Positions 7,148-8,045 of a DNA stretch of 35,520 bases are shown piece after piece; position 1 is the first letter of the stretch, and the number at the start of each line of letters is the position of its first letter. The translations under genes were made by a program, and so were the position numbers. The stretch covers positions 1 to 35,520 of the forward strand of contig PNLE01000017.1 in NCBI GenBank assembly GCA_013822855.1, read 5' to 3'. The notes beneath the pieces were generated by a model. The model saw nothing but the letters and a program-made list of their open reading frames with translations. It ran no database searches and had not been told where the DNA came from. This stretch comes from Planctomyces sp. (GTDB lineage Bacteria > Planctomycetota > Planctomycetia > Planctomycetales > Planctomycetaceae).

Positions 7148-7179
7148 GGGTGCCACTGCTGGCTTGCCCAGCAGTGCTC
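7148..7179 (-). repeat. REP palindrome 1 (inverted orientation)
   Basis: Nine-base arms CACTGCTGG (7154-7162) and CCAGCAGTG (7168-7176) around a five-base loop. Read on the minus strand it is identical over 32 bases to REP 2 at 7334-7365, including the asymmetric flanks (GAG before, GCACCC after). The two make an inverted pair around a decayed transposase end. It lies immediately after the LamG-like gene. Confidence 0.9.
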
Positions 7180-7230
7180 TTCCGGGGACTGATGAAGGGT
7201 GTATGTAGCCGTTAACCGAGATCGATCGTC

Positions 7231-7318
7231 GGCTGGAAATAGTTGTTGGCATCTTTTGGGATGGGGTATCGTGGATCATGGTGTGCTGGTGCTAAAGTCG
7301 GTGACTGTGGTCGAGATT
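7231..7318 (+). pseudogene. Remnant of the 3' end of a second RAYT transposase
   Basis: In the frame of TGG CAT CTT this region reads W-H-L-L-G-W-G-I-V-D-H-G, aligning with W-H-L-S-G-G-G-I-V-E-E-G at the end of the intact transposase (7424-7996). The alignment then runs on to the REP palindrome in both places (GATCGGAGGAGCAC). A six-base gap near GGCTGGAAAT is needed. Upstream similarity is lost, so only about the last 30 codons survive. It shows that a RAYT-REP unit was present in at least two copies side by side. Confidence 0.72.
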
Positions 7319-7333
7319 GTTGGCCGATCGGAG

Positions 7334-7365
7334 GAGCACTGCTGGGCAAGCCAGCAGTGGCACCC
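7334..7365 (+). repeat. REP palindrome 2
   Basis: Arms CACTGCTGG (7337-7345) and CCAGCAGTG (7351-7359) with loop GCAAG, preceded by GATCGGAG and followed by GCACCC. It lies upstream of the RAYT gene. About 25 bases further on are partial copies: GTGGCACCCT (7371-7380) and the half-site CCAGCAGTGGCA (7389-7400). This leaves one full and two partial right arms before the transposase start. Confidence 0.9.
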
Positions 7366-7423
7366 AAGTAGTGGCACCCTGGAACGATCCAGCAGTGGCA
7401 TCCCGACAGGTTGATGGAGCGTC

Positions 7424-7996
7424 TTGGTGGCTGTCATTCGCAAGCAGGTCAAGCACTACTCCGAACCGGGCCATGTCCATGAGTTGACGTTTTCCTGTTA
7501 TCAACGACGGCCACTGCTCACGAACGATCACTGGCGTGGTTTAATGGCGGAAGCCGTGAACCGGGCTATGGCCCGGCATGACTATCGTCTGCTGGCGTTC
7601 GTCTTCATGCCGGAACACGTGCATCTGCTGGTCTATCCCGAGGAGGGAGCGGCGAGCCTGCCGGAGCTCTTGAATGCGATCAAGCGGCCGTATTCGTACC
7701 GGATCAAACAACTCCTGATGGCGGCAGGTAGTCCACTGATCTCGCAGCTGACCGTTCACCAAAGGCCGGGTGTCAAAACTTTTCGGTACTGGCAGGAGGG
7801 GCCGGGCTATGATCGGAACATCACCAATCTGGAGACGCTGAGGCTCGCCATCGACTACATCCATGAGAACCCGGTGAAACGGGGTCTGTGTCAACAATCG
7901 GTCGACTGGAAATGGTCGAGTGCCCGGTGGCATCTTTCGGGAGGGGGTATCGTGGAAGAAGGTTTGCCGCTGCTTCGGTCGTTGCCGTGGTCATGA
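7424..7996 (+). CDS. REP-associated tyrosine transposase (RAYT, IS200/IS605-like Y1 HUH family)
   Basis: The 190-residue product is a single-domain Y1 transposase of the RAYT group, which acts on REP single-stranded hairpins. The HUH metal-binding motif is His65-Val-His67 within FMPEHVHLLVYP. The candidate catalytic tyrosine is Tyr145 in AIDYIHENPVKRGL, and the trailing W-K-W-S-S-A block is typical of the family. An early region with HVHELTFSCYQRRPLL (about 17-32) forms the first strand. Start is TTG at 7424 or GTG at 7427; GGAG at 7416-7419 fits the GTG slightly better. All key residues appear present, so the enzyme looks intact. REP palindromes lie on both sides and elsewhere in the window, which is the classical RAYT context. 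Confidence 0.93.
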   Translation: MVAVIRKQVKHYSEPGHVHELTFSCYQRRPLLTNDHWRGLMAEAVNRAMARHDYRLLAFVFMPEHVHLLVYPEEGAASLPELLNAIKRPYSYRIKQLLMAAGSPLISQLTVHQRPGVKTFRYWQEGPGYDRNITNLETLRLAIDYIHENPVKRGLCQQSVDWKWSSARWHLSGGGIVEEGLPLLRSLPWS

Positions 7997-8013
7997 TGAT
8001 TGGCTGATCGGAG

Positions 8014-8045
8014 GAGCACTGCTGGGCCAGCCAGCAGTGGCACAC
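8014..8045 (+). repeat. REP palindrome 3
   Basis: Arms CACTGCTGG (8017-8025) and CCAGCAGTG (8031-8039) with loop GCCAG, again preceded by GATCGGAG and followed by GCAC. It begins 18 bases after the RAYT stop. Together with REP 2 it brackets the transposase in direct orientation. It differs from REP 1/2 by one loop base and one base in the right flank. Confidence 0.9.

What the first reader, a model, noticed from the sequence alone, without database searches (positions are those of the whole stretch)
7148..8045. Intact RAYT transposase bracketed by its REP palindromes
Three near-identical REP palindromes (GAGCACTGCTGG ... CCAGCAGTGGCAC) surround a RAYT with intact HxH and Tyr residues. REP 1 and REP 2 are perfect over 32 bases but inverted, a BIME-like pair; REP 2 and REP 3 are in direct orientation on either side of the gene, with about 30 bases of extra shared flank (GATCGGAG). 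RAYT/REP pairs are best studied in gammaproteobacteria; an intact planctomycete pair with its own REP class would be a useful comparator.
Basis: partly seen in the sequence, partly recalled or inferred. Interest (0 to 1): 0.6.

Follow-up and report, generated by a model that had tools for sequence, protein, structure and literature searches.

The report
Planctomycete RAYT transposase with REP palindromes
A small transposase gene sits between copies of a hairpin-forming DNA repeat that is scattered about fifty times through the same planctomycete genome; relatives show that each such transposase carries its own matching hairpin, so this is a genuine transposase-repeat pair of an already known kind in a little-studied phylum.

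Summary
Confirmed. Three 32-nt palindromes surround an intact RAYT (NF047646, E 8e-29; fold closest to E. coli TnpA-REP, 4er8). The palindrome occurs about 50 times in this 4.69 Mb genome, against two RAYT genes; the other RAYT has a different terminal repeat. Of 27 clade RAYTs scanned, 25 have a palindrome of the same shell (CACTG...CAGTGGCACMC) beside the gene, 19 as an outward-facing inverted pair. The shell is fixed; inner stem pairs co-vary and follow the RAYT tree, not the host (one genome has three RAYTs with three stems). Copy number tracks the RAYT across the class (29/34 versus 48/215 genomes) and within genera (permutation p 0.002). Two congeners have an empty site here. Corrections: the flank shared by REP2 and REP3 is a decayed RAYT 3' end, so REP1-remnant-REP2 looks like an internally deleted unit; REPs persist without this RAYT in three congeners; the foot is G-K-GTGC, not GT[AG]G; planctomycete tyrosine transposases with flanking repeats were reported before (Rhodopirellula baltica). 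New member of a known kind. Cleavage and present mobility are untested.

The parts
7148..7179 (-). REP1, GAGCACTGCTGGGCAAGCCAGCAGTGGCACCC on the minus strand (conserved foot GGGTGC at the outer, left end)
   Evidence: ssDNA fold -12 kcal/mol, z -3.3
7225..7332 (+). decayed remnant of a RAYT 3' end (matches about 7897-8008)
7334..7365 (+). REP2, same palindrome, plus orientation
7366..7403 (+). two half-REP fragments (AGTAGTGGCACCC, CCAGCAGTGGCATCC)
   Evidence: family D3
7424..7996 (+). RAYT gene (TTG 7424 or GTG 7427 start); HUH/Y1 transposase, H64, H66, W122-Q123, Y144 numbered from the GTG
8014..8045 (+). REP3, 3' flanking palindrome (loop GCCAG), outer foot on the right
7126..7136 (+). GAGTGGGTTGT, left copy of an 11-bp stretch present once in the empty site of congeners
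8051..8061 (+). GAGTGGTTTGT, right copy of that stretch
28888..28924 (+). further REP downstream of an amidohydrolase gene; match with flanking gene reaches this REP in G001, G002 and G003
29376..29416 (+). further REP in the gap before 29451; related flank in G001

Best explanation
This is a REPtron: a REP-associated tyrosine transposase gene with its cognate REP palindromes, inserted between two host genes in this lineage. By analogy with E. coli TnpA-REP, the protein should bind the single-stranded REP hairpin, reading the outer foot (5' G-K-GTGC next to the CACTG stem) and the inner stem pairs, cleave near it through Y144 and rejoin the strand, so that REPs and REP-bounded units spread. 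REP1-remnant-REP2 is best read as an internally deleted copy of such a unit. Shown here: anatomy, dispersal of the palindrome, association with the RAYT, stem/RAYT co-evolution and the empty site. Inferred: binding, cleavage, strand choice and any present activity.
For: Family and fold: NF047646 100 bits over a cut-off of 80; 4er8 is the best structure by sequence (E 1.5e-6) and by fold (E 4e-8), model pLDDT 90.7. About 50 copies versus one cognate RAYT. In relatives the element is mostly 680-830 bp with outward-facing inverted REPs; of 27 clade RAYTs scanned within 300 nt for the shell, 25 show it, 19 with the inverted pair. Inner stem pairs co-vary: 33 of 39 standard pairs against a shuffle mean of 22.3, 0 of 10,000 shuffles as high. 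Stem class needs 8 changes on the RAYT tree, shuffled labels at least 11; G053 and G060 each hold two RAYTs in different clades with matching stems, G064 three. The G093 copies listed nearly all carry the CCGG stem of its own RAYT. 29/34 clade-RAYT genomes versus 48/215 others have 4 or more shell copies, Fisher 2e-12; within-genus permutation p 0.002. Empty site in G001 and G002.
Against: G001, G002 and G003 keep 22-32 REPs without a RAYT of this clade; 27 of 173 genomes without any RAYT match at 1e-30 have 4 or more shell copies. A REP of this window (28888) is at a position shared with the congeners, so part of the REP population is older than this insertion. Relatives L080, L086 and L088 have T, D or H at the catalytic tyrosine column.
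Confidence: 0.86

Rival explanations
1. The palindromes are host elements (for example terminators or nucleoid-protein sites) and the RAYT merely inserted among them; it does not drive their spread.
For: REPs persist in three congeners without the RAYT, one at a shared position downstream of a gene; sampled REPs are enriched outside ORFs (16 of 36 against about 10% expected).
Against: Stem class follows the RAYT tree, including two or three RAYTs in one genome each with its own stem; counts rise with RAYT presence within genera.
Confidence: 0.1
2. It is an ordinary IS200/IS605-type insertion sequence and the scattered palindromes are solo ends of dead copies.
For: Compact unit of about 690 bp with terminal hairpins in relatives; a RAYT-tail remnant next to REP2.
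Against: The NCBIfam IS200 model scores 22 bits under a cut-off of 55 while the RAYT model passes; a DNA search with the whole unit returned only REP-sized matches elsewhere in the genome.
Confidence: 0.06
3. A relic: the RAYT is intact but no longer moves anything; the REPs are an old, vertically inherited set.
For: Shared old REP site; REP populations kept without the RAYT. This can be true together with the best explanation.
Against: Lineage-specific insertion of the RAYT unit; only a minority of sampled REP sites of this genome aligned with REP loci of the congeners, though divergence and incomplete sampling limit that.
Confidence: 0.25

Closest known systems
E. coli TnpA-REP (RAYT group 2) and its REPs; PDB 4er8
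   Same: HUH/Y1 fold, HUH motif, WQ, YI-NPVK-G motif, REP hairpins beside the gene
   Different: About 23 extra residues before WQ, no GTAG foot, different stem sequence; the R104 column holds T133 in the alignment
TnpA-Y1 subclass 2.6 (Bertels RAYT group 5), PMC6006769
   Same: Insertion of about 21 aa, SS motif after the tyrosine, WQ, no GT[AG]G tag, HUH-Y distance near 80
   Different: Described mostly from Bacteroidetes with NH[LIV]H; here EHVH and YIHENP, in planctomycetes, with a regular hairpin. No subclass 2.6 sequences were compared here
TIRtrons / TIRYTs and the repeats of Rhodopirellula baltica, PMC3733652
   Same: Tyrosine transposase flanked by inverted, partly self-complementary repeats that also occur dispersed; known in a planctomycete
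   Different: The published GGGGWSAS motif does not match the G-K-GTGCCAC foot; the figure sequences could not be read, so identity with a published family is not excluded
REPINs of Pseudomonas, PMC3116915
   Same: Inverted REP pairs as mobile doublets; REP1-REP2 has an inverted arrangement
   Different: In this genome most copies found are single; the spacer here derives from a RAYT gene

Membership tests
RAYT (REP-associated tyrosine transposase) | RAYT profile over its curated cut-off | tested here: met
   NF047646 100.4 bits, cut-off 80
RAYT (REP-associated tyrosine transposase) | HUH motif, catalytic tyrosine, NP(L/V)(R/K)xG motif | tested here: met
   H64, H66, Y144, NPVKRG; motif definition from PMC2817692
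[quoted passage not shown]
   REP1 minus and REP3 plus flank the gene, with REP2 and a RAYT remnant between REP1 and the gene; inverted pair at 19 of 27 clade RAYTs scanned
REP family | many dispersed copies, mainly outside genes | tested here: met
   54 matches at E 0.05 or better, 50 at 1e-4 with stricter filters; 16 of 36 outside greedy ORFs, expectation about 10% (noisy method)
GTAG-tagged REP superfamily | 5' GT[AG]G tetranucleotide at the foot | tested here: not met
   foot is G-K-GTGC in alignment A1 and in relatives
RAYT/REP system | the RAYT cleaves its own REP single strand | not testable with these tools
   needs protein and oligonucleotides
IS200/IS605 insertion sequence | IS200 profile over cut-off | tested here: not met
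   NF033573 22.1 bits, cut-off 55
TnpA-Y1 subclass 2.6 | phylogenetic placement with subclass 2.6 sequences | not tested
   only motifs and insertion length compared with the published table

The most novel reading that the evidence does not exclude
Planctomycetes hold a class-wide REP superfamily with a fixed shell (CACTG...CAGTGGCACMC, foot G-K-GTGC) in which the inner stem pairs act as a specificity code read by the cognate RAYT, so that several RAYT-REP pairs can coexist in one genome without crosstalk.
Probability: 0.45. Interest if true: 0.6.

Novelty: new member of a known kind. Interest (0 to 1): 0.42.

Why it matters
Whether RAYTs drive REP spread, and how each RAYT knows its REP, are open questions. 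This class of planctomycetes offers paralogous RAYTs with distinct stems in one genome (G064, G053, G060), congeners with and without the RAYT, and an empty site, so specificity and spread can be tested by comparison and in vitro. The foot that replaces GT[AG]G would test whether the guide rule of IS200/IS605 enzymes holds outside the studied groups.

Tried and rejected
A general target-site duplication was looked for at the outer ends of the other elements and not found, so the 11-bp repeat at this site stays a single unexplained case. An empty site for a single REP was sought at contig C134; the intergenic DNA of the congeners is too diverged to align. The RAYT fragment of G001 near 3666694 was read as a possible relic of this clade; its GGGYDRN motif points to the other clade. 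The surroundings of the second RAYT (C281) were searched for this palindrome; they have a different terminal repeat. The genome-contig scan found few relatives: a Planctomycetaceae MAG, two loci in Blastopirellula marina and two weak ones.

Full report
Observation. The window holds three copies of a 32-nt palindrome at 7148-7179 (minus), 7334-7365 (plus) and 8014-8045 (plus) around an open reading frame of 190 codons at 7424-7996. Dinucleotide shuffles of the window give no match where three places match. REP1 and REP2 agree over all 32 bases, inverted. Folded as single-stranded DNA the three score -11 to -12 kcal/mol, z -2.1 to -3.3.

The protein. It matches Pfam Y1_Tnp and the NCBIfam RAYT model over its cut-off, and the IS200 model under its cut-off. 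The nearest solved structure by sequence is E. coli TnpA-REP, 4er8 (E 1.5e-6). An AlphaFold model from the window protein and 20 homologues has mean pLDDT 90.7 and finds 4er8 first (E 4e-8), then IS200/IS605 transposases. H64, H66, W122, Q123 and Y144 are present. Against 4er8 there are about 23 extra residues before WQ, as described for subclass 2.6 (PMC6006769); placement in that subclass was not tested with its sequences.

Anatomy beyond the finding. The flank shared by REP2 and REP3 is the end of the gene: 7225-7332 aligns with the RAYT 3' end, score 69 against a shuffle maximum of 33. Left to right the locus is REP1(-), a RAYT-tail remnant, REP2(+), two half-REPs, the intact RAYT, REP3(+). 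I read REP1-remnant-REP2 as an internally deleted unit; that is inference.

Genome-wide. A sequence model of 26 copies finds 54 places at E 0.05 or better; 16 places match the strict pattern with up to 2 mismatches and none match its reversed control. Two RAYT genes pass the cut-off. The other, on C281, has a different inverted repeat. Of 36 sampled REPs, 16 lie outside greedily chosen ORFs that cover about 90% of the sequence; the ORF method is crude.

Relatives. Of the 99 genomes searched (this one included), 72 have a RAYT homologue. Around the closest ones a general inverted-repeat search found a palindrome pair facing outwards at most loci, usually within 150 nt of the match. A stricter scan for the shell within 300 nt of 27 clade RAYTs found it at 25: 14 have just the inverted pair, 5 have the pair plus further copies (window, L078, L079, L084, L171), 4 show one side only (L075, L083, L085, L173) and 2 another arrangement (L088, L169). 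L164 and L165 showed none and were left out of the tree. The shell CACTG...CAGTGGCACMC is constant; the inner stem pairs change together (33 of 39 standard, shuffle mean 22.3, none of 10,000 as high).

Co-evolution. On a tree of 28 RAYTs, 25 of them labelled by stem class, the labels need 8 changes where 7 is the minimum for 8 classes; 300 label shuffles need at least 11. G053 and G060 each have a CTG-stem RAYT and a GCxxAGC-stem RAYT in different clades; G064 has three RAYTs with three stems. The stem thus follows the RAYT, not the host. The classes were drawn up by eye, some forks are open, and the labels of the one-sided loci rest on one detected copy.

Association. With the general shell pattern, all 19 genomes of the first set with a RAYT of this clade have 4 or more copies, against 29 of 80 others. 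In 249 genomes of the class it is 29 of 34 against 48 of 215, Fisher 2e-12, and 27 of 173 where no RAYT reaches 1e-30. Relatedness inflates such tests; a permutation within genera gives p 0.002. The cut for 'clade' (about 264 bits) was chosen after seeing the list, and the two genome sets overlap.

History. In congeners G001 and G002 the two genes that flank this locus are adjacent, so 7137-8050 is absent there. I take it as an insertion here; loss in both is less economical but not excluded. An 11-bp stretch is present on both sides here and once in the empty site; other elements show no such duplication, and IS200/IS605 elements do not make larger target duplications (PMC2817692), so it is left unexplained. 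G001-G003 have no RAYT of this clade yet hold 29, 22 and 32 copies; many of their sites are shared among themselves and a few with this genome, for example the REP at 28888. REPs here are partly older than this insertion.

Known or new. REPtrons with a tyrosine transposase and inverted REPs are established (PMC2817692, PMC8266576). Planctomycetes are not new ground: R. baltica was reported with many tyrosine transposases and flanking repeats (PMC3733652). The foot G-K-GTGC fails the GT[AG]G criterion, but REPtrons without that tag are also known (subclass 2.6, class 3). I file it as a new member of a known kind, with a testable stem code as the point of interest.

Noticed in passing
window 7126-7136 and 8051-8061: GAGTGGGTTGT / GAGTGGTTTGT on both sides of the insertion, once in the empty site of G001 and G002; looks like a target duplication, unexplained for a transposase of this type.
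   Followed up: partly
L018 1279-2025 (G000:C281): Second RAYT of this genome, flanked by an unrelated inverted repeat (GGGGGCTTCCGC...GCGCCCCC).
   Followed up: partly
L080, L086, L088: RAYT relatives with T, D or H at the catalytic tyrosine column; L080 and L086 still have REPs on both sides.
   Followed up: no
L179 5801-5848 and 5950-5987: Two further short dispersed repeats in this genome and its congeners, next to a REP.
   Followed up: no
L003, L008, L026, L030, L035: GCGCATCGAGT motif recurring beside several REPs.
   Followed up: no
L003, L008 and window 7322-7333, 8002-8013: REPs on C12 and C84 share a short flank (CGATCGGAG) with the REPs at the RAYT 3' end, a hint that a RAYT-side REP was the source copy.
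   Followed up: no
G179, G155, G147 (listing): Closely spaced minus/plus REP doublets in other genomes of the class, REPIN-like.
   Followed up: no
window 1749-2903: YhcG-type PDDEXK nuclease gene (DUF1016_N plus YhcG_C) upstream of the locus.
   Followed up: no
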